IMG/VR virus record: IMGVR_UViG_3300042922_000854
Span: 1-43,135 of that record
Length of the DNA stretch: 43,135 nucleotides
Direction: 5' to 3' (one strand)
Source: a virus
Both the position numbers and the translations under genes were made by a program. Positions 76 through 42,978 of the stretch are shown here, one piece after another. Position 1 is the stretch's first letter; every line of letters begins with the position of its first letter. Below the pieces are notes generated by a model. That model was given only the letters and a program-made list of their open reading frames with translations. It did no database searches and had not been told where the DNA came from.

Positions 76-97
76 TTTTTCTAATAAACTTCTAATG
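76..97. repeat. Integrase arm-type repeats (two units)
   Basis: Two 11-bp units at 76-86 and 87-97 resemble the TTCTTCTAATA units tandemly repeated four times at 42865-42908. The first differs at one position; the second is AACTTCTAATG. They overlap the 3' end of the integrase gene. Groups of arm sites on both sides of a core are typical of lambda- and Tn916-type attachment sites. Confidence 0.5.
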
Positions 98-1210
98 ACC
101 TTCAATTTTCTTGAAAAATGTCTCTTCTATATTATCAGCCAAGTTCTGCTTCATATTCTCAGTTACATGCTGATAAATCTGTTGAGTTGTGGAGATCTTG
201 GCATGGCCTAGCATAGCCGATACAGTTTTTATATCTATGCTGCCATCCTCAAGCATAAGCGTGGCAAAGCTATGTCGCAGATCATGGAATCTGATATGCG
301 GAAGTCCAATTTCATCTAATATCTTTACAAACTGAGTATAAAGGCTCTTTGGAGTGTACGGTTTTCCGAGACTGTTCCAACACAAATAATCTTCTTTATT
401 AAAATCAGGGTTAGGCATACGGTTTATGCGCAGCTGGCGCAGATGTTTGTCTAACTCTTTTCTTGTTGTTTGAGGAAGCTTAAACTGTCTTGTTCGCTCT
501 GTCTTTGTACTTTTTAAATTACCTTTCCTATCCATAGACTGCCCAATTCTAAGATAGCCTTCCTTGGATGAGTAATCAATGATTTTAAGCGCAGATATTT
601 CCCCTTGCCGAGCTCCTGTGGTTATAGCCAAGAGCATAGGCATGTAATATCGCTTATCCTTTATATAATTAAAAAATATTTTGCATTGGTCTATATCCCA
701 TACCTGCATCTGTTTCTTGTTCACCTTTGGAAGTTCGATGTCGGTGCTTGGATCATACTGTATTAATCTCCACTTCTTAGCTTGCTTCAATGCATTGGAG
801 AGTACAATATAATGCTGCTTGATTGTCCGTGGAGCTTTTTCTTCTGACTCAAGCTTTGAGATATATTTTTGTATTAGAAGCGGGCTCACCTTATCAATTT
901 TATAGTGAGAAAAGTATGGATTTATCGAATTCTTAATAATGCTTTTGTATCTCTGAATTGTATTATATTCTAATTTCTTCTCAGCCTGCTTCATATATTC
1001 GTCTAGAAGATCATACATGGTCATGTTCTTTGGATCTGCATAAAGACCTGTTTCTATTTCATATTGCTTTTTAGTCAGCTCTTTCTCTGCTTGCTTTTGG
1101 GTATTGGACTCTACACAAGGTATCCACTTTTGCTTCTTGTTGCCTTCCTCATCCATCATGTATATGATCATGTACCATTTATTTCCCTTCTTGGTTACGC
1201 TGCCGTTCAT
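92..1210 (-). CDS. int: Tyrosine-family phage integrase
   Basis: This 372-aa site-specific recombinase would integrate and, with a helper, excise the phage. It has an N-terminal arm-binding region (about residues 1-55), a SAM-like core-binding domain (about 62-155) and a C-terminal catalytic domain. The visible catalytic set is R201 (TGARQGE), H309 and R312 (HDLRH), H336 (LGHAKIS) and the nucleophile Y346 (QQIYQH). The ATG at 1208-1210 is preferred because an AGGAGGTG lies upstream; a TTG nine bases earlier is too close to that site. The gene's 3' end runs into the putative attP, the usual arrangement for phages. A small gene overlaps its start by 32 bp, and a LexA box lies upstream of both. 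Confidence 0.95.
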
Positions 1211-1367
1211 TATTATCAAACACCTCCTGATTCAATTTTACGTCAGAATCAGTGGTATTAGTGGAGGTATATTGTTCCATGTCGGATATACCGACCGGTA
1301 TATTTTGGAATATTATAACTCCATTACGCTTTATCTGTAGTACACCACAAGGTATTTCATGCAACAA
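1179..1367 (-). CDS. Small unknown protein upstream of integrase (excisionase candidate)
   Basis: This is an open frame of 62 codons immediately before and overlapping int. The TTG at 1365-1367 is chosen because GAGGGGGTG lies eight bases upstream; an in-frame ATG at 1431-1433 would give 84 aa but has no good ribosome site and would run through the SOS box. The product has no domain I recognise. Its first half is hydrophobic and beta-prone ([17 protein letters not shown]) and its tail is polar. Position and co-transcription suggest an excisionase or directionality factor, but it lacks an obvious winged-helix motif. That role is inference. Confidence 0.5.
1281..1303. promoter_or_regulatory. 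Overlapping palindromes, possible operator (copy 1)
   Basis: Positions 1282-1294 read TCGGATATACCGA, and an overlapping near-perfect palindrome, ATATACCGACCGGTATAT, spans 1286-1303. A sister of the first motif occurs at 1535-1547 in the opposite orientation. Both lie around the start of the int operon. The function is unknown; a binding site for an excision or lysogeny regulator is possible. Confidence 0.35.
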
Positions 1368-6071: not shown

Positions 6072-7001
6072 ATGCCGTTTAGCAGTGAAATATATTTAGA
6101 TATTTTTGATAAAGCATTTGAAGATGGTAAAGAAGAAAAATTTGAAAATTTAAGAAGCAAGGATATTTTTACATATAGGGTCAAAACAATTAAATCTGGA
6201 AAGATGCTTGAAAGTGAAATTTATCCATTATGGAAAAACAGAAGTGAAGCAACCAGGGCAAAAAAAGAAATAGAATCTCGCAAGGTCCAAAAAAACCTAA
6301 ACGATAAAAATGCCAAGAAAAATATTATCAGGAAAATCAATACCAATTTCACAGATGAAGATTTAGCAATTGACCTTACCTATAAAGGATCTCCTCCGGA
6401 TGAAGAGCAGGCAAGAAAGGATATACAAAATTACATACGCAGGGTAAGAGAGTATCGCCGAAAAAATGGATTGCCTGAGCTAAAGTACATATATGTCATT
6501 GAATTTGATACTGATGGGAAAAAAAAGAGAGTTCACCATCATATGCTGATGAATTCAATGGATAGGGATGTAGCGGAAAAACTTTGGGGAAAGGGGTATG
6601 CAAATGCCCGCCGGCTGCAGCCTAATGAATTCGGATTAGAAGGCATTGCCAGATACATCACCAAGGACCCAAAAGGTACCAAACGATGGTGTGCTAGTAG
6701 AAATTTGCAAGAACCCAAAATTACAATAGCAGATCACAAAATCACGAAGCGGCAGGCCGAAAAAATAGCCAAGAATCAGAATGATGCAGCTGCCATCTTT
6801 GAAAAAATCTATAAAGGCTATAAGTTCAACGACATAAATGTGAAATATAGCGATTATGTCTCAGGTGCTTACCTATATGCAAGGATGAGGGTGAATGAAG
6901 CGGCAGAAAGCAATAAAAGGAAGAAGCAGGAGCGGAATCCGGCAAAAGGGGGGAAGGACAGATATGAAGCTAAAGCCTTGTATATGGACAAGCTGCCCTG
7001 A
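6072..7001 (+). CDS. rep: HUH-family rolling-circle replication initiator
   Basis: This 309-aa protein has the HUH endonuclease signatures in order. A motif 1 strand (AIDLTYKG, about 99-106) is followed by an H-H-H metal-binding motif at 155-157 (RVHHHMLMN) and a single catalytic tyrosine Y195 in RYITKDP, with K198 in the Y-x2-K arrangement. This matches the REP_ORF2-G2P group seen in Firmicutes phages and plasmids. It would nick one strand at the origin and start rolling-circle replication. The first 90 residues are charged and helical and the C-terminus is basic. Start ATG follows an AGGGGGAA. Its 3' end overlaps the next small gene by 38 bp. It could also act on an oriT, since HUH Reps and relaxases are related. 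Confidence 0.85.
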   Translation: MPFSSEIYLDIFDKAFEDGKEEKFENLRSKDIFTYRVKTIKSGKMLESEIYPLWKNRSEATRAKKEIESRKVQKNLNDKNAKKNIIRKINTNFTDEDLAIDLTYKGSPPDEEQARKDIQNYIRRVREYRRKNGLPELKYIYVIEFDTDGKKKRVHHHMLMNSMDRDVAEKLWGKGYANARRLQPNEFGLEGIARYITKDPKGTKRWCASRNLQEPKITIADHKITKRQAEKIAKNQNDAAAIFEKIYKGYKFNDINVKYSDYVSGAYLYARMRVNEAAESNKRKKQERNPAKGGKDRYEAKALYMDKLP

Positions 7002-8164: not shown

Positions 8165-9508
8165 ATGATACAAAATATTGAAATATCAAGAATTCATCCC
8201 CACTATGATAATCCTCGAAGAGACCTCGGAGACCTTACTGAGCTTGCAGAGAGTATTAAAAATAGTGGGATTTTGCAAAATCTAACAGTAGTACCGTGGT
8301 TCTCAAAAATCACAGGGGTTGGTGCTGATGATCCTAAGCAGCAGGAAGAAATGGGATATATAGTTGTTATTGGCCACCGTCGCCTCGCAGCTGCAAAGCT
8401 TGCCGGACTAACAGAGGTACCATGCGCTATATCAAGCATGAACTTACGTGAACAAGTTGCAACAATGCTGCTTGAGAATATGCAGCGTAGCGATCTGACT
8501 GTATGGGAACAGGCGCAGGGATTCCAAATGATGCTTGACCTGGGCGAAACAGTTGTTGATATTTCAACAAAAACAGGCTTCTCCGAAACTACAGTGCGCC
8601 GAAGAATGAAGCTACTGGAGCTGGATGGAGATAAATTTAAGAAGTCAGTTGAACGCGGAGCCACCTTAATGGATTTCGTTGAACTGGATAAGATAAATGA
8701 TCTTTCCCTGAGAAACAAAGTCCTTGATAAGATAGGTACTCCAAATTTCAAGTGGGAGCTGCAGCAGGCTATTGATAAAGAAAAGAATGAAAAAAATAAG
8801 GCCATAATAGTTGCCGAGCTACAGAAATTTGCGAAAGAAATCAAAAGTGGTAATGGATTAATATGGGTCAAATGCTATCATACCTCACAGGTTCCTGATA
8901 TAACTGCACCAGATGACGCTGAAACTGTAAAATATTTCTTTCAAGTATCGGAATATGGCAGTATCACCTTATATAAGAAGTCAGAGAACAATGAAAGCCC
9001 AGCTCCGGGTAGTTCAGTACAGGATGAGAAACAAAAAGAATTTAGAGAGCGACGTGCTGCTTTGGAAGAGATATCAAAACGAGCCTATCAGCTCAGGAGC
9101 AATTACATTAAAGAAATATCAAATACTAAGGCAAAAAAGAATATGGGCTTAATCATTGAGTATTTCTTGCGCACCATGGTGTATGAAGATTACTACAATT
9201 GCGATTATGAGGAATTTACTAAATTTCTTGATATTGAGATTAATGAAGACGAGGAATGGAGCTATGACGATATTGCAGAACGTGTCACAGCACAGCCTGA
9301 GCGTCATATGCTTGTCGCAACCTACTTAATGCTTGATTCTGAAAGAGAATATTATTATAACTGGAGCAATCAACATCTAGCCAATGAGACGCTAAACATG
9401 GTATATGATTTTCTAGAAAAGCTAGGATATGAGACATCTGAAGAAGAGCTTGCACTGCGCAACGGTACACACGAGCTGTTTCAAAGTGCAAATGGAGATG
9501 TTGCATAA
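8165..9508 (+). CDS. ParB/Spo0J-family CTPase-type DNA-binding protein
   Basis: A 447-aa protein with a ParB N-terminal domain. Visible marks are an early P-R-R-D-L segment, the nucleotide motif GHRR (70-73; GERR in most ParBs), ENMQRSDLT (104-112; the ENxxR motif) and a helix-turn-helix at about 130-152 ending TVRRRMKLL. In ParB the first two motifs form the CTP pocket of a DNA clamp. No ParA ATPase is nearby. The C-terminal 220 residues are acidic and unassigned. It could centre-bind a parS-like site for partition, or regulate transcription or replication, as ParB relatives in phages do. Confidence 0.85.
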   Translation: MIQNIEISRIHPHYDNPRRDLGDLTELAESIKNSGILQNLTVVPWFSKITGVGADDPKQQEEMGYIVVIGHRRLAAAKLAGLTEVPCAISSMNLREQVATMLLENMQRSDLTVWEQAQGFQMMLDLGETVVDISTKTGFSETTVRRRMKLLELDGDKFKKSVERGATLMDFVELDKINDLSLRNKVLDKIGTPNFKWELQQAIDKEKNEKNKAIIVAELQKFAKEIKSGNGLIWVKCYHTSQVPDITAPDDAETVKYFFQVSEYGSITLYKKSENNESPAPGSSVQDEKQKEFRERRAALEEISKRAYQLRSNYIKEISNTKAKKNMGLIIEYFLRTMVYEDYYNCDYEEFTKFLDIEINEDEEWSYDDIAERVTAQPERHMLVATYLMLDSEREYYYNWSNQHLANETLNMVYDFLEKLGYETSEEELALRNGTHELFQSANGDVA

Positions 9509-9545: not shown

Positions 9546-10532
9546 ATGATAGGTTTAATAGATGTAGATGGAAAACTTCCTAATCTTGCATTGATGAAAA
9601 TCAGCAGCTTTTATAAATCCCTTGGGGAGCGGGTTGAGTTTGTAAAGCAGGGTGCTAAGTACACGAAGATATACGCCAGCTGTTTATTTTCATGGAATAG
9701 ACATGAGTGTGAAAGGATTCTAAGTGTATATCCGGAAGCGGAAATCGGTGGCACTGGTTGGGACCTGAATAAAACACTTCCAGATGAAATTGAAAGCTGC
9801 CGGCCGGATTATGAACTTTATACAATTGAGGATATATTGCCGAGAATAAAAGGCGGAATAGCATCGAAGGAAAGCAAAATTAAAAAGGCAGAAATAATTA
9901 TTAATGCAGGAATGGGATTTACATCAAGAGGATGTGTGAGAAACTGTGGATTCTGCTTTGTGCCTCCTAAGGAAGGACAGTTTCATCAGGTATCTAGTAT
10001 AGGAGAGCTGTTAAATTCAAAGAGTGATGTTTTAATATTGATGGATAACAACCTCACTGCTGATCCAAATGTACTGGACAAGCTTAAGGAGATAAAGGAA
10101 CGAAACTTAATAGTTGATATTACTCAAGGGATTGATGTGAGGTTACTTACTCCAGAGATTGCAAAAGCATTATCTGAGATAAAACATTTGAGAAGCGTCC
10201 ACTATGCATGGGATTTAATGGGTTACGAAAAGCAGGTAATGGAAGGAATCAAAATATTATCGCAGCATGTCAAGCTATATAAGCATCTCTGCATGATGCT
10301 GACCGGTTACAACACAAATTTCGAAGAAGACATGTACCGGTTCAGAAAGCTTGTAGAGCTTGGGGTAAAACCTTATGTAATGCCATATAACAAGACTTAC
10401 CCGACAAAAAAACATCATTGCTTTGCAGGCTGGGTGAATAGTAGAAAACATACGATATGCAGTTTTGAAGAGTTTGAACCATGGGTTAAAGCTCAATCTA
10501 ATTCAGGTCAAATTAGTATGTTATTAGACTAA
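9546..10532 (+). CDS. Radical SAM protein with N-terminal cobalamin-binding-like region
   Basis: A 328-aa enzyme with the [4Fe-4S] radical-SAM motif C130-x3-C134-x2-C137 (SRGCVRNCGFCFVP). The N-terminal 100 residues have a B12-binding-like alpha/beta pattern (LIDVDGKLPNLALMKIS...) without a clear cobalamin DxHxxG. Strands and helices after the cluster fit a partial TIM barrel. The substrate is unknown. Radical-SAM enzymes in phages have been linked to base or cofactor modification. It follows ParB by 37 bases with an AGGAGG, and another radical-SAM-like gene lies at 11794. Confidence 0.83.
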   Translation: MIGLIDVDGKLPNLALMKISSFYKSLGERVEFVKQGAKYTKIYASCLFSWNRHECERILSVYPEAEIGGTGWDLNKTLPDEIESCRPDYELYTIEDILPRIKGGIASKESKIKKAEIIINAGMGFTSRGCVRNCGFCFVPPKEGQFHQVSSIGELLNSKSDVLILMDNNLTADPNVLDKLKEIKERNLIVDITQGIDVRLLTPEIAKALSEIKHLRSVHYAWDLMGYEKQVMEGIKILSQHVKLYKHLCMMLTGYNTNFEEDMYRFRKLVELGVKPYVMPYNKTYPTKKHHCFAGWVNSRKHTICSFEEFEPWVKAQSNSGQISMLLD

Positions 10533-33767: not shown

Positions 33768-33786
33768 GGGGAGTAAATTACTCCCC
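33768..33786 (-). terminator. Perfect 9-bp hairpin between convergent tail and moron genes
   Basis: GGGGAGTAA and TTACTCCCC are inverted around one base. On the minus strand it is followed by TTATATTTT and would terminate the moron gene; in the plus direction it is a weaker terminator. It overlaps the moron stop codon. Confidence 0.75.
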
Positions 33787-34368
33787 TAGTATCTCATTAA
33801 ATAACTTAACATTATAATACGGTTTTCCAACCGAATCTAAAAAATGGTTTCCAGATATTTTTAGGTCTGCTAGTACAATATTATTATCCTTTGCGAATGT
33901 TGTTACATTCGTCTTTACATCTATGAACTTAGATTTAATCCCAAAGTGTGCAAATAAATCACTTAATGATAAATAAGTATTTCCATTGTACTTAACAGCT
34001 CCGTTACAACCCTTATAATCAATTACTTCGGCGCTAACTGGAAGTCCGGTATCTAAATCATATTCTATTGCTGCAGTTGTACTCATTTGTACACTTGCTA
34101 GATTTGAAGTAACTTCAGCCTGGCCAAGTTCAGCGTTCCAATTTACATTAAGTCCTGCTTTTTCTAATATACCTCTAAAAGGAGCGTAGGTATTACCTTT
34201 GTAATTTAGGATAGGCAGCTCTTCACTGATGTACTCAGATCCATTAACCATAACCTTGTAGTCAGCTTTATAGCAAAGAAACTCTTCGATAGCTGCGCTT
34301 GCTGGTATTATTGAAAACAGCATTGCACCGACTAGAAAGCCAATGACAAAATGTTTATATTTCTTCAT
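33778..34368 (-). CDS. Secreted stalk/copper amine oxidase N-domain-like protein (moron)
   Basis: A 196-aa protein on the strand opposite to all late genes. Residues 1-26 are a signal peptide (HFVIGFLVGAMLFSIIPASA). The mature part has a stalk / copper amine oxidase N-terminal-like domain: VMVNGSEYISEELPILNYKGNTYAPFRGILEKAGL, then NWNAELGQAEV. This fold is common on clostridial cell surfaces. Its own promoter (TATAAT on the minus strand near 34400) and flanking terminators mark it as a moron, probably expressed in lysogens and exported. Lysogenic conversion or surface masking is possible but unproven. Confidence 0.78.
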   Translation of the reverse strand: MKKYKHFVIGFLVGAMLFSIIPASAAIEEFLCYKADYKVMVNGSEYISEELPILNYKGNTYAPFRGILEKAGLNVNWNAELGQAEVTSNLASVQMSTTAAIEYDLDTGLPVSAEVIDYKGCNGAVKYNGNTYLSLSDLFAHFGIKSKFIDVKTNVTTFAKDNNIVLADLKISGNHFLDSVGKPYYNVKLFNEILGE

Positions 34369-38600: not shown

Positions 38601-39491
38601 ATGATTATTGGAGTAGACCTAGGTTACGGCTACACAAAGACCTCGGAAGGTATTGTTTTTCCTTCGAGAATCAGTACTCAGGAAACTATTTTAGAGGAAG
38701 GAAATATGCTGATTCTCGATAATAAGGCTTATACAGTAGGAGAAGGTAATGTAGAAGTAGATTTAAACAGAATTAACAAGGAACTTACAAGAGTATGCCT
38801 AATTGAAGCTCTAGCAAAGTCGAGTAATCAGAATGATTTTCAAGTTGTTGCCGGCTTACCTTTAGGACTTTTTAGCTCACAAAAGAATCTAATGAAACAA
38901 ATGCTTTTGAGCAACAGATATGTTGAATTTGAGAGTAACAAACAAAAGAGAGCAATCGCCATTACCAAAGCAGAGGTATTCCCTCAGTGTCTTGGGGCTC
39001 ACTATTCGCTCCCGGCTGCAGATGATACGGAAGACAGAATTTATATTGACATAGGCGGGCGTACAGTTATTATAGCACTCTTACAGGTGGTTAACGGCAA
39101 AAGGAAAGTTACACAGCACTCCACTATATATGAAGGAACTCTTACATTATTTTCAAAGATTGTAGCAGCAATCAATTCCAAGTATGAAACCCTATTTGAG
39201 ATAGAGGATGGCGAGAGGATCCTTAAGAATGGTCTTAGCATTTATGGAGAGAAGCGGGATATAGGCTTTATAAGAAACATTATAGAAGAGCACACAGATA
39301 AGATAATGAAGGAGCTGCTGCTTAAATATCCGGTAAAGACTGCGAAAGTAACGCTAGCCGGTGGCGGTGCTTATGTATTGAAACAATTATTTGATAAGAG
39401 AATACCTGGAACCACAATAATACCAAATGCACAGTTTGCAAATGCAAATGGTTTTAAGAGGATAGGAGTGAGTTTATGGCAAAGGTATTAG
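38601..39491 (+). CDS. parM: ParM/StbA-like actin-type partition ATPase
   Basis: A 296-aa actin-family protein. The marks in order are phosphate-1 loop GVDLGYGYTK (4-13), phosphate-2 loop YIDIGGRTVI (148-157), and the adenosine motif TLAGGGAYVL (251-260). It would polymerise in ATP-dependent filaments that push plasmid copies apart. It overlaps the parR-like gene by 16 bases, the expected operon. Its presence on a phage genome argues for a plasmid-like prophage state. The family is close to the clostridial and Bacillus ParM/AlfA group, not to MreB. Confidence 0.88.
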   Translation: MIIGVDLGYGYTKTSEGIVFPSRISTQETILEEGNMLILDNKAYTVGEGNVEVDLNRINKELTRVCLIEALAKSSNQNDFQVVAGLPLGLFSSQKNLMKQMLLSNRYVEFESNKQKRAIAITKAEVFPQCLGAHYSLPAADDTEDRIYIDIGGRTVIIALLQVVNGKRKVTQHSTIYEGTLTLFSKIVAAINSKYETLFEIEDGERILKNGLSIYGEKRDIGFIRNIIEEHTDKIMKELLLKYPVKTAKVTLAGGGAYVLKQLFDKRIPGTTIIPNAQFANANGFKRIGVSLWQRY

Positions 39492-39673
39492 TTAGCTTTA
39501 AACAAAAGGAGCAAGATCTATTCAATAAAGTATCAGAACAAGGAGATAAAAGTAATTTTATGAAAGATGCTCTTAAGTTCTATCTTAAGCATAAAGACCA
39601 AAAAAATAATATTACCCCAGCTGTAACTGAGGTAAAGAGTGAGGAAATCATTGATATCCTTGAAAGCCTATAG
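39476..39673 (+). CDS. parR: ParR-like small DNA-binding protein
   Basis: A 65-aa protein whose first 40 residues fit a ribbon-helix-helix: strand VLVSFKQKEQDLF, then KSNFMKDALKFYLKHK. The end is acidic (EEIIDILESL), a likely actin-binding tail. Size, overlap with parM and fold match ParR adaptors, which bind the centromere and the filament tip. The ATG lies inside parM with an AGGAG. Confidence 0.75.
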   Translation: MAKVLVSFKQKEQDLFNKVSEQGDKSNFMKDALKFYLKHKDQKNNITPAVTEVKSEEIIDILESL

Positions 39674-39902: not shown

Positions 39903-40184
39903 ATGTATAAAAAAATATTAGTGTTCCTGCTAATTGCTATATTTATATTAACAACAACTGTTAGTGCTGCCAGTGGAGATGCTGACTTCTGGAAGCTCCT
40001 AGCTGCATTTAGAAAAGGTTTGTTTTGGGTAGGGGTATTCTCTAGCATATACGGATTATACCTGCAGATGCTGAAGCGTGACGATATGGGTAAGAAAATT
40101 GTTATTACCTGTGTGTTGACCTATATTGCAAGCTATGTAGTACCGAATGTATTCGTAATGATTGATCAGACTTTTGGGAAGTAG
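39903..40184 (+). CDS. VirB2/TrbC-like small membrane protein
   Basis: A 93-aa protein. Residues 1-23 are a signal peptide (ILVFLLIAIFILTTTVSAAS). After a short polar part come two membrane segments (about 40-55 and 66-85) joined by a basic loop KRDDMGKK. That is the layout of VirB2/TrbC pilins and of related small subunits in Gram-positive transfer systems. It has an AAGGAGGG site and leads a three-gene block with the ATPase at 40467. The sequence match is by layout only. Confidence 0.55.
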   Translation: MYKKILVFLLIAIFILTTTVSAASGDADFWKLLAAFRKGLFWVGVFSSIYGLYLQMLKRDDMGKKIVITCVLTYIASYVVPNVFVMIDQTFGK

Positions 40185-40192
40185 GTGGAGAT

Positions 40193-40465
40193 ATGTGGGA
40201 TTTATTAGATAACCTCAAAAAGTTCAATGAGACCACACAGGAGTACTTTGATATCATAAAGACGGTATATCATTATATTACCCATCCTAAGGAACTGCTG
40301 ATTTGGTTATGGAGTACTGCAGTTGATCTGAGTTTTTATGTTTGCTTATCTATATTTTGTATCTGCCTGGTGCTTCATCTTCTAGGTGTAAAAAAAGCAA
40401 GGTTATATGCTCAGATGTCTTTCTTCATATATCTGACTATCATGATATTTAATAAGGTGATGTAG
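40193..40465 (+). CDS. Two-helix membrane protein of the secretion-like block
   Basis: A 90-aa protein with a polar helical N-terminus (LLDNLKKFNETTQEYFDIIKTVY) and two membrane segments (about 43-63 and 70-88). It sits between the VirB2-like protein and the ATPase, so it is likely a membrane partner of that ATPase. It could replace a VirB3- or PrgH-type subunit. Family not recognised. Confidence 0.6.
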   Translation: MWDLLDNLKKFNETTQEYFDIIKTVYHYITHPKELLIWLWSTAVDLSFYVCLSIFCICLVLHLLGVKKARLYAQMSFFIYLTIMIFNKVM

Positions 40466-40466
40466 C

Positions 40467-42785
40467 ATGAAGTGGATGAAAGCAAGTGAATTCTTCAAAA
40501 TCTACAATCCAAAGTACAGCATACTGAAGATTATTCCAGATACCTCAATAAGGAATTATGACAGCGAAAATATAGCAAGAGTTATCTGTAATATGTATAA
40601 CCTTCCTATTGATAGACTAAAGTTTAAAAGCCATCAACTCACCTATAGGCTACCGAATAAAACCGCATTCTTCATTGACATAAGCCTAAAGGAAGTTAGC
40701 TTCTACATCATCACTCCGGAAGAATTTGAGAAACTGGTCATTGAGAAATGTAGCGGCACTTGGCCAAAAGCAACTATCCAAAGAGTAGGTCTAGTGTCGA
40801 TGTTCTCCAGCAAGGCCGTCAAGCATGAACTAGTGTATAGGAAGGAAGATGCACTAAGCCTAAAGGTGGATAAAAAGAGCAATGAGCCGCTGAACAGTAT
40901 ATTGAATGTAATTGACATCATGGAGCAGGATGACAGGGTAGGGGTGTTATACAACTTCATGCCGGGCAATCAAGGCTCCTGGTATAATAAGCATCGTGAC
41001 ACCATGGAGAGAATTAAGAAGAATACTCCTGTCGATAAACAAAAGCTCAATATAGGATATATGCTGATGTACCTGATTGATGAGATTATGAAAATATTCA
41101 TTATGACTTTTGAAGAGATGGCCAACTTTATAGGTGATGGCAAGAACATAACTGAAGGTCGTAAAGATGAAGGACCTGGCATGCAACTCTATAAAATGCT
41201 TTCCACAACAACACTCCGGAAGGCTGACAGAAATATTCTAGATGCACAGTTGTTGGTGATCAGTGAGAGTCAGAACGAAACAAGAGCTAAGAACAATGCT
41301 ATAGCTGTATGCGAGAGTTATAAAACCATTTCAGAAGATAATAGCCTTTCTTATAGACCTACACTTTGTAGTTTTGATTATGAGAGCTTTAAAATCAAAG
41401 GTATAACTACTAACATAATCAGTACTGAAGAAGCTGCTAACTTAATTCAAATACCTGGAAGAACATTATTACAGCAGCACCCCAACATTGAGAAAGTGGA
41501 TGTGCTTGAATGCCCAATACCAGAGGAAATAAGTAACGGGTATATATCCTTAGGGAGTGCACCATACAAAGGGCAAGAATATCCCACTTTTCTTCCGGAT
41601 GAATACAACCTTGGGAATTTACCTCTAACGATCGTAGGTCCTCCGGGGAGCGGGAAAACCACTTATATTGCAAACTATGTTAAGTATGTAAGAAAACGTA
41701 AAGAGGCAGTAGTACTAATTGATTTTATAAAAAACTGTGAGCTATCAGAGGATATTGAAAAGATAATTCCAAAACAAGATCTAATAATAATTGACTGTTC
41801 AAACGAAGAACAATTGCAAGGAATGGGCTACAACGAAATTAAGCGTACTGGTAAAAGCGATTTTGAAAAGCTAAAGGCTGCCAATCTTATGGCTGAGCAG
41901 ACGCTTGCTTTGGTTGATAGCATCAACAACGAAGGGCTTCCACTTACATCAAAGATGCGCAGGTATTTATCTGCTGCATGCAATGTGGCTTTTCTATTTG
42001 ATATTAATATAAAATCTGCAATAATGTGCTTGCAGGATTACAGGAAAAGAGAAGAATATATTAAAGCAATACCAGAATCAATGAGAGCCCTCTTAGATGA
42101 GGAGATAGGAGCGTTAGAAGAACTCAACGAATATACACTTACAAAGGATCCTGACTCGAAAGAAGTTCTATCAGCGCTAACCGGTACTAGGGATAGTAAG
42201 ATTGATGGGATATTAGATCGTATAAATCTCATTCGAGAGAATATTTATTTAAAATACATGTACAGCAAAAGCTGTTCTAGCAATATTGATTTTGTTCAGG
42301 CCATGGAGCAAGGGAAAGTAATACTTATCAAAATGCCAGAGGATACCTTCGGCAGCAAGATGGTCAAGAACGTACTGGTGACATACTTCTGCAGCAAGAC
42401 TATTCTTTCAACCAAGATTAGGGGGGCAATGCATAAACAGCCTTCACGTTGCCACGAAATAATTGACGAACTATATCAAGCGCCGACTGCAGCTCGCTTG
42501 ATTAAGGAAACTATCAATCAGGTGCGGAAGTTTGGCAAGAAATATGTATTTAGCTGCCACTATCTGAATCAGATTGGTACTTTAAAAGAAGAGCTCAAAA
42601 GCGGCAACAGCTCATATATGCTACTCCATGGAAGCGACAAAACAATATATAAGGAGCTGGAAGATGAGCTGAAGCCTTATGATGTTGAGGACCTTCTAAA
42701 CTTAAAGAGATTTACTTCGCTAAACCTTATCAAGTACCAAAAGGGATATGCAAAGTTCATTAGCAAGCTTCCTGCACCGGTATAA
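40467..42785 (+). CDS. VirD4/HerA-superfamily DNA-translocation ATPase
   Basis: A 772-aa P-loop ATPase. Walker A is GPPGSGKTT (391-399) and the following strand VLIDFIKNC fits the fold. Walker B is HEIIDELYQAP with D667/E668, and a sensor segment VRKFGKKYVFSCHYLNQI follows, as in VirD4/TraG/VirB4 and HerA motors. The first 380 residues are unassigned and probably dock a partner. No strong N-terminal membrane anchor is seen; the two small membrane proteins upstream could supply it. Such enzymes pump DNA or protein through type IV secretion channels. It is unexpected in a tailed phage, where terminase already packages DNA. It starts at ATG after AAGGTGATG and ends before a strong terminator. 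Confidence 0.75.
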   Translation: MKWMKASEFFKIYNPKYSILKIIPDTSIRNYDSENIARVICNMYNLPIDRLKFKSHQLTYRLPNKTAFFIDISLKEVSFYIITPEEFEKLVIEKCSGTWPKATIQRVGLVSMFSSKAVKHELVYRKEDALSLKVDKKSNEPLNSILNVIDIMEQDDRVGVLYNFMPGNQGSWYNKHRDTMERIKKNTPVDKQKLNIGYMLMYLIDEIMKIFIMTFEEMANFIGDGKNITEGRKDEGPGMQLYKMLSTTTLRKADRNILDAQLLVISESQNETRAKNNAIAVCESYKTISEDNSLSYRPTLCSFDYESFKIKGITTNIISTEEAANLIQIPGRTLLQQHPNIEKVDVLECPIPEEISNGYISLGSAPYKGQEYPTFLPDEYNLGNLPLTIVGPPGSGKTTYIANYVKYVRKRKEAVVLIDFIKNCELSEDIEKIIPKQDLIIIDCSNEEQLQGMGYNEIKRTGKSDFEKLKAANLMAEQTLALVDSINNEGLPLTSKMRRYLSAACNVAFLFDINIKSAIMCLQDYRKREEYIKAIPESMRALLDEEIGALEELNEYTLTKDPDSKEVLSALTGTRDSKIDGILDRINLIRENIYLKYMYSKSCSSNIDFVQAMEQGKVILIKMPEDTFGSKMVKNVLVTYFCSKTILSTKIRGAMHKQPSRCHEIIDELYQAPTAARLIKETINQVRKFGKKYVFSCHYLNQIGTLKEELKSGNSSYMLLHGSDKTIYKELEDELKPYDVEDLLNLKRFTSLNLIKYQKGYAKFISKLPAPV

Positions 42786-42852: not shown

Positions 42853-42864
42853 GCATGCCTTTAA

Positions 42865-42908
42865 TTCTTCTAATATTCTTCTAATAAACTTCTAATATTC
42901 TTCTAATA
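42865..42908. repeat. Four tandem 11-bp integrase arm-like repeats
   Basis: The units at 42865, 42876, 42887 and 42898 read TTCTTCTAATA, TTCTTCTAATA, AACTTCTAATA and TTCTTCTAATA. Two related units lie on the other side of the core at 76-97 (43084-43105). One more partial copy (TTTCTAATAAAC) begins at 42787. Confidence 0.85.
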
Positions 42909-42978
42909 AATTAACCATATTTATATATATGCCAATTTGCACCAACAAGCGGTAAGCCTTGAAATTACTCTTTTCTTT

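What the first reader, a model, noticed from the sequence alone, without database searches (positions are those of the whole stretch)
39903..42785. Conjugation-like block (VirB2-like protein, membrane partner, VirD4/HerA ATPase) on a tailed phage
A 772-aa ATPase with clear Walker A (391-399) and Walker B (D667/E668) follows two small membrane proteins, one with the signal-peptide, two-helix and basic-loop layout of VirB2/TrbC. It sits beside ParMR and on the same genome as an HUH nuclease. A phage with its own terminase does not need a second DNA pump. Possible roles: plasmid-state transfer between cells, protein export, or DNA anchoring for partition. This is the best candidate for a new system here.
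Basis: partly seen in the sequence, partly recalled or inferred. Interest (0 to 1): 0.85.

Follow-up and report, generated by a model that had tools for sequence, protein, structure and literature searches.

The report
Phage-borne stripped-down conjugation machine
Many viruses of Gram-positive bacteria, including the laboratory phages SPP1 and SPO1, carry a conserved three-gene set (a pilus-type protein, a small membrane protein and a DNA-pump-type ATPase) that looks like a stripped-down bacterial mating machine, and nobody knows what it does for the phage.

Summary
At 39903-42785 a circular tailed-phage contig carries a VirB2-like protein, a small membrane protein and a 772-aa T4SS/HerA-type ATPase, next to ParM and a small basic protein. 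It is no remnant: dN/dS is 0.02-0.14 against close relatives. The block recurs in 106 non-redundant phage or prophage loci; the VirB2-like gene is upstream of the ATPase in 101. Carriers include SPP1 (genes 31.1-31.2-32), SPO1 and phage G. VirB2-like members match TrbC/VirB2 and T4SS_pilin Pfam models; the partner never does, but is fused to an M23 peptidoglycan peptidase in about a fifth of loci. The three proteins co-diverge (r 0.7-0.8); the nearby endolysin does not (r 0.15). The ATPase motor is closest to VirD4 by profile, the whole fold to VirB4. Phage G adds VirB6-like and true VirB4 proteins beside the family ATPase. ParM is optional. Best reading: a T4SS-derived, envelope-spanning pilus/translocation machine, most likely moving phage DNA; the substrate is unproven. 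A 2018 SPP1 paper had proposed a 'translocon' for these genes, so the locus is not wholly new; the pilin, peptidase fusions, breadth and phage G context appear unreported in the papers searched here.

The parts
39903..40184 (+). VirB2/TrbC-like pilin precursor ('B2'), 93 aa: leader 1-22 (39903-39968) ending VSA|A, then a two-helix hairpin
   Evidence: AF2 pLDDT 83; Ala at -1 in 81/88, Ala/Val at -3 in 80/88, mature length median 76 aa; TrbC PF04956 in 14/88 homologues, best E 6e-7; the window copy itself has no significant TrbC hit
40193..40465 (+). Partner membrane protein, 90 aa, C-terminal 2-TM domain; in relatives fused to an M23 peptidoglycan peptidase
   Evidence: M23 in 16/67 homologues, best 9e-34; not in the window copy
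40467..42785 (+). T4SS/HerA-superfamily ATPase, 772 aa (phrog_5156, E 9e-100, function unknown); no transmembrane helix found
   Evidence: AF2 pLDDT 89.9; Foldseek: TrwK/VirB4 7.7e-14, TrwB 8.9e-10, HerA 4e-9; hhalign motor: VirD4 > HerA > VirB4 >> FtsK
40467..41591 (+). N-terminal domain of the ATPase (residues 1-375), VirB4-like only by fold
   Evidence: VirB4 alignments run about 880-900 columns, TrwB about 430; no sequence-level match to any T4SS ATPase
41637..41660 (+). Walker A GPPGSGKT (residues 391-398)
42465..42470 (+). Walker B D667-E668
   Evidence: E668 invariant
39476..39673 (+). Small basic protein, putative ribbon-helix-helix/ParR-like DNA binder (SPP1 gene 31 equivalent)
   Evidence: in 82/106 loci; in 45/61 loci without ParM; phrog_18533, unknown function; RHH fold not confirmed by Pfam
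38601..39491 (+). ParM/Alp-type actin homologue; optional neighbour
   Evidence: PF17989 2.7e-21; 33/94 loci
6072..7001 (+). HUH rolling-circle replication initiator; possible source of nicked or single-stranded DNA, link to the module untested
   Evidence: REP_ORF2-G2P 2.1e-12; phrog_3584 5.9e-78
92..1219 (-). Tyrosine integrase, adjacent to the ATPase across the circular junction of the contig

Best explanation
The block is a phage-adopted, stripped-down derivative of a conjugation (type IV secretion) apparatus that works at the cell envelope. Shown here by sequence: a VirB2-class pilin precursor, a co-diverging small membrane partner (often fused to a peptidoglycan peptidase) and a T4SS-superfamily ATPase form one conserved unit. 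Inferred: Sec and signal peptidase place the pilin as a membrane hairpin; the partner anchors the soluble ATPase and, with its M23 domain or a separate hydrolase, opens the wall; the ATPase extracts or assembles pilin and pumps substrate. Most likely substrate (inferred, weaker): phage DNA presented by the small basic DNA-binding-like protein and, in some phages, by a nicking Rep/Replic_Relax protein, allowing direct passage of the phage genome to a touching cell. My probabilities: T4SS-derived envelope machine about 0.85; DNA as the exported substrate about 0.45.
For: B2 upstream of the ATPase in 101/106 loci; B2 and partner are the nearest conserved genes in an unbiased neighbour clustering. 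TrbC/VirB2 and T4SS_pilin hits in B2, none in the partner control. Leader about 56 aa, mature about 76 aa, near-invariant signal-peptidase site. ATPase fold VirB4/TrwB/HerA, motor profile VirD4 98.6%. M23 fused on either side of the partner's 2-TM domain. Distance-matrix correlation ATPase-B2 0.79, ATPase-partner 0.71, ATPase-endolysin 0.15. Phage G: pilin gp150 (above Pfam cut-off), TrbL/VirB6 gp153, VirB4 gp155 (CD1110, 3e-51), family ATPase gp156. SPO1 places a Replic_Relax protein (PF13814, 2.9e-12) directly after the ATPase. Purifying selection.
Against: The window has no recognisable VirB6, VirB8 or relaxase; a three-gene set is smaller than any T4SS I know to move DNA, and even Ced/Ted keep a VirB6-like channel. 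The window B2 and partner have no significant family hit of their own. Foldseek on the B2 model alone is uninformative. SPP1 gene 32 is dispensable for phage multiplication. I found no experimental evidence of transfer.
Confidence: 0.5

Rival explanations
1. A pilus or surface-appendage builder only: B2 makes a filament, the ATPase powers pilin extraction as VirB4 does, and no DNA moves. The appendage would pull cells together or block competing phages.
For: Pilin plus VirB4-like fold and no recognisable channel subunit; M23 to pass the wall; the slot after the lysis genes suits an accessory gene.
Against: The motor is closest to VirD4, the DNA-coupling type, not VirB4; phage G keeps a separate true VirB4 beside the family ATPase; a basic DNA-binding-like protein is linked in 82/106 loci.
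Confidence: 0.2
2. A membrane effector or exporter that alters the infected cell (superinfection exclusion or protein export), using T4SS parts without intercellular traffic.
For: Early transcription unit and dispensability in SPP1 (PMC6316719); accessory-gene position.
Against: No candidate protein substrate is linked to the block; signal-peptide pilin and wall hydrolase point outward.
Confidence: 0.15
3. A DNA import apparatus like archaeal Ced/Ted: pilin and VirB4/HerA ATPase take up DNA.
For: Ced/Ted show that T4SS-derived pilin plus ATPase systems can import DNA, and TedC has a predicted cleaved signal peptide (PMC9905601).
Against: No CedA/VirB6-like channel in the ordinary loci; the benefit to a lytic phage is unclear.
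Confidence: 0.08
4. DNA anchoring or partition: the ATPase and membrane proteins tether phage DNA for ParMR-based segregation.
For: ParM and a putative ParR lie directly upstream in the window; ParM is near the block in 33/94 loci; ATPase-ParM distance correlation 0.62.
Against: 61/94 loci have no ParM; the block occurs in lytic SPP1/SPO1 and in prophages on 0.7-1.0 Mb contigs, two of them with ParM; partition does not need a pilin or a wall peptidase.
Confidence: 0.06
5. Non-functional remnant of a conjugative element.
For: Several T4SS subunits are missing.
Against: dN/dS 0.02-0.14 for the three genes against close relatives; the block recurs in over 100 loci.
Confidence: 0.01

Closest known systems
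SPP1 gp31 / gp31.1 / gp31.2 / gp32 (Viruses 2018, PMC6316719)
   Same: Same genes in the same order; locus L136 matches SPP1 in length and gene coordinates. The authors proposed that gp32 with gp31.1/31.2 could build a 'trans-membrane translocon' and noted synteny with GBK2.
   Different: The passages read do not name a pilin or peptidase fusions, nor the breadth (SPO1, phage G, clostridial prophages); function and substrate were left open.
VirB/VirD4-type type IV secretion systems (R388 Trw; Gram-positive ICEs, CD1110/CD1115)
   Same: VirB2-class pilin, VirB4/VirD4 superfamily ATPase, wall hydrolase, small membrane subunit beside the ATPase.
   Different: No VirB6, VirB8 or relaxase in ordinary loci; one ATPase with mixed VirB4/VirD4 character. 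Gram-positive T4SS classes are stated to lack VirB2 pilins (PMC12102498).
Ced/Ted DNA-import systems of archaea (PMC9905601)
   Same: Reduced, T4SS-derived set with a two-helix pilin and a VirB4/HerA-type ATPase.
   Different: Ced/Ted keep a VirB6-like channel (CedA/TedA), are described as domesticated T4SS derivatives of archaeal cells, and import DNA.
Tyrovirus gp11-18 region (PMC9703825)
   Same: ParM, an RHH-like gene, a T4SS protein and a replication-relaxation protein in one region, as in SPO1.
   Different: Interpreted there as possibly transferred from a conjugative plasmid; pilin and partner not named in the passage read.

Membership tests
Type IV secretion system (whole apparatus) | VirB4 and/or VirD4-type ATPase | tested here: met
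   Superfamily met by fold, hhalign and Pfam TrwB_AAD_bind; exact subfamily mixed
Type IV secretion system (whole apparatus) | VirB2-class pilin (where a pilus is made) | tested here: met
   TrbC/VirB2 in 14/88 and T4SS_pilin in 8/88 homologues, none in 67 partner controls; phage G gp150 above cut-off. Met at family level, not by the window copy alone
Type IV secretion system (whole apparatus) | VirB6/VirB8 channel subunits | tested here: not met
   Unbiased clustering finds no such recurring gene; a VirB6-like protein was found only in phage G, TrbL gp153
Type IV secretion system (whole apparatus) | Cell-wall hydrolase (VirB1 role) | tested here: inconclusive
   M23 fused to the partner in 16/67 homologues; not in the window copy
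Type IV secretion system (whole apparatus) | Relaxase with oriT | tested here: inconclusive
   Window has a rolling-circle HUH Rep, not a known relaxase; SPO1 has Replic_Relax; no oriT search was made
VirD4/T4CP coupling proteins | RecA-like motor of the VirD4/TrwB type | tested here: met
   hhalign VirD4 98.6%, score 138, against VirB4 107 and HerA 111
VirD4/T4CP coupling proteins | N-terminal transmembrane anchor | tested here: not met
   No TM in the window ATPase by hydropathy; Walker A at residue 391, versus about 135-190 in most of the VirD4 set
VirB4 family | VirB4 N-terminal domain | tested here: inconclusive
   Whole-chain Foldseek to TrwK/VirB4, top 11 hits, but no sequence-level match and no PF03135 hit in 40 members
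FtsK/SpoIIIE | FtsK-type motor | tested here: not met
   hhalign probability 38-52% over only 45 columns
Ced/Ted DNA import | CedA/VirB6-like polytopic channel | tested here: not met
ParMRC partition | Actin-like ParM | tested here: met
ParMRC partition | RHH adaptor ParR and centromere repeats | tested here: inconclusive
   Small basic neighbour without RHH Pfam support; only two 18-nt repeats upstream of parM
T4SS function | Contact-dependent DNA or protein transfer | not testable with these tools
   Needs a mating-type assay

The most novel reading that the evidence does not exclude
Tailed phages of Gram-positive bacteria build a conjugation-type pilus and pump on the infected cell and send their genome straight into a neighbouring cell without a virion, a second, receptor-independent route of phage spread, with a single ATPase doing the work of both VirB4 and VirD4.
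Probability: 0.25. Interest if true: 0.95.

Novelty: new variant of a known kind. Interest (0 to 1): 0.76.

Why it matters
The block sits in model phages studied for decades (SPP1, SPO1, phage G), so its function can be tested now in Bacillus subtilis. Gram-positive conjugation systems are said to lack VirB2 pilins (PMC12102498), so a pilin in their phages is unexpected. If the machine moves DNA, some tailed phages would have a virion-independent way to spread, and phage and conjugative lifestyles would overlap in one genome. If it only makes a pilus or excludes rivals, it is still a widespread unstudied phage function.

Tried and rejected
A virB2-virB3-virB4 colinear reading was my first hypothesis: gene order and whole-chain fold agree, but the motor profile and the phage G context (a true VirB4 beside the family ATPase) point to VirD4, so I left it as a hybrid. 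The partner is not called VirB3: no VirB3 Pfam hit in 67 homologues. An early partner count (86/94) came from an HMM that had drifted into B2 (118 shared hits); the clean count is 73/106. Foldseek on the B2 model gave nothing with E below 0.001, as expected for a short helical hairpin; the B2 profile's top PDB hit is 'Pilin' 9moq at E 0.2, which is not significant. RHH assignment of the small basic protein failed in Pfam. Centromere-like repeats near parM are weak. The alignment of all ATPases was too diverse for locus searching, so subgroups were used. No paper on SPO1 gp27.4 was found. PADLOC gives only a motor-level match to mad8, not a defence system.

Full report
WHAT IS THERE. The contig is circular: its ends share 99 bp and the window ends share 127 bp, so the ATPase (ends 42785) lies next to the integrase (92-1219, minus strand). 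The element is a tailed phage with terminase, portal, capsid, tail, holin and endolysin genes and an HUH rolling-circle Rep. A second contig of the same assembly carries another copy, ATPase 90% identical. The genome (88% complete) has no PF02534 VirD4 match and no CD1110 VirB4 match at the thresholds used, so the block is not an obvious complement to a resident conjugation system.

IT IS A CONSERVED, SELECTED UNIT. The ATPase is phrog_5156 (E 9e-100), annotated only as unknown function. Homologues occur in 53 records of the phage collection, including SPO1 gp27.4, phage G gp156, D6E, GBK2 and several B. subtilis siphophages. Scans of viral and genome contigs gave clostridial and other Firmicute prophages. 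I collected 142 loci, 106 after removing near-duplicates. A B2-like gene lies upstream in 101/106, or 91/94 with enough upstream sequence. The partner was found with a clean profile in 73/106, the small basic protein in 82/106 and ParM in 35/106. Unbiased clustering of neighbours finds partner and B2 as the genes fixed next to the ATPase; HTH regulators, endolysin, ParM, the small basic protein and integrase follow at looser positions. Distance-matrix correlations with the ATPase are 0.79 for B2, 0.71 for partner, 0.41 for the small basic protein and about 0.15 for the nearby endolysin, so the three genes travel together while neighbours are exchanged. dN/dS against close relatives is 0.05-0.14 (B2), 0.06-0.09 (partner) and about 0.02 (ATPase, with dS near saturation).

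THE PILIN. Across 88 homologues, Ala is at the predicted -1 position in 81 and Ala/Val at -3 in 80; the leader is about 56 aa and the mature part about 76 aa, with a mostly basic loop, which from general knowledge is the VirB2/TraA layout. Pfam TrbC/VirB2 matches 14/88 (best 6e-7) and T4SS_pilin 8/88 (best 2e-6). The partner, also a small two-TM protein, gives no such hit in 67 sequences, so the hits are not just hydrophobicity. The window copy itself is too divergent for a direct hit; its assignment rests on homology to those members. B2 and partner profiles show a weak mutual similarity (hhalign 39.6%), noted but not relied on.

THE PARTNER. In 16/67 homologues the partner carries an M23 peptidoglycan peptidase (best 9e-34), N-terminal to the two-TM domain in most and C-terminal in L077, L088 and L109. 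A motif scan found 19/106 loci with such an ORF just upstream of the ATPase, against 3 such ORFs elsewhere in the same loci. In vB_BboS-125 and an Alicyclobacillus plasmid an M23 protein sits directly before the ATPase. Two fusion topologies suggest a functional tie to the cell wall.

THE ATPASE. The AF2 model has pLDDT 89.9. Foldseek against PDB lists R388 TrwK/VirB4 in ranks 1-11 (best 7.7e-14, aligned over nearly the whole chain), then TrwB/VirD4 (8.9e-10, motor only) and HerA. Superposition quality is modest (TM about 0.3, rmsd about 14 A for VirB4), so domain arrangement differs. Profile comparison of the motor instead ranks VirD4 first (score 138 for the full profile), then HerA 111 and VirB4 107, with FtsK poor; the N-terminal domain has no sequence-level match to any. 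NCBIfam for phage G gp156 also prefers TraD/CD1115 VirD4 models. I therefore describe it as a T4SS ATPase with a VirD4-like motor in a VirB4-like overall architecture, and do not file it in either family.

PHAGE G CONTEXT. In phage G the family ATPase gp156 follows gp155, a VirB4 of the CD1110 type (3e-51, below that model's own cut-off because gp155 is short), with gp153 TrbL/VirB6-like (1.8e-11) and gp150 a T4SS pilin above the Pfam cut-off. Only phage G has this extended set among the phage records searched; other gp155 hits are partial, mostly on unannotated faecal contigs. This supports a T4SS origin for the small block.

MECHANISM. Shown by sequence: pilin-class precursor, wall-peptidase link, T4SS motor, conserved unit. 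From established knowledge of T4SSs: VirB4-type ATPases drive pilin extraction and VirD4-type ATPases couple DNA. Inferred: a membrane-anchored pump with a pilus or short conduit, most likely serving phage DNA. Against partition: ParM is absent from 61/94 loci and the block is in lytic phages and in prophages on large contigs. Against remnant: selection and conservation.

PRIOR WORK. SPP1 genes 31.1, 31.2 and 32 were suggested to form a trans-membrane translocon; they lie in an early transcription unit (PE5), and 31.2/32 are non-essential because the SPP1invmir inversion disrupts 31.2 and leaves 32 promoterless (PMC6316719). Tyrovirus gp11-18 was noted as plasmid-like (PMC9703825). A 2025 T4SS review has no hit for 'bacteriophage', 'phage-encoded' or 'prophage' (PMC12857230), and another 2025 paper states that Gram-positive T4SS classes lack VirB2 homologues (PMC12102498). 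I found no functional study, within the open-access library searched.

VERDICT. Real, widespread, T4SS-derived and unstudied; new variant of a known kind. The DNA-transfer reading is plausible but untested.

Noticed in passing
L027 936-7301 (Bacillus phage G gp150-gp156): Phage G carries a fuller T4SS-like cluster: T4SS_pilin gp150, TrbL/VirB6-like gp153, VirB4 CD1110-type gp155 and the family ATPase gp156.
   Followed up: partly
L025 7639-8463 (SPO1 gp27.3): A Replic_Relax (PF13814, 2.9e-12) protein directly follows the SPO1 ATPase; a replication-relaxation gene also follows the T4SS gene in tyroviruses (PMC9703825).
   Followed up: partly
L025 2406-2852 (SPO1 gp29.1): SPO1's pilin-like gene lies upstream of ParM instead of next to the ATPase, with a weak T4SS_pilin match (E 0.022).
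   Followed up: partly
window 42864-42921: About four 11-bp tandem repeats (ATTCTTCTAAT) between the ATPase and the integrase; possible integrase arm sites or DNA-binding sites. Not seen in the tandem-repeat scan of L013.
   Followed up: no
window 8165-9508: ParB-N domain protein (PF02195 7e-13) on the same phage, besides ParM.
   Followed up: no
window 33778-34368 (minus strand): Copper amine oxidase N-terminal domain protein (PF07833 1.7e-11) encoded against the late genes, next to the lysis cassette.
   Followed up: no
window 9546-10532: Radical-SAM-like protein (PF04055, below cut-off) on the phage.
   Followed up: no
L151 (G000:C18): A second related element in the same assembly carries the block at 84-90% protein identity.
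   Followed up: partly
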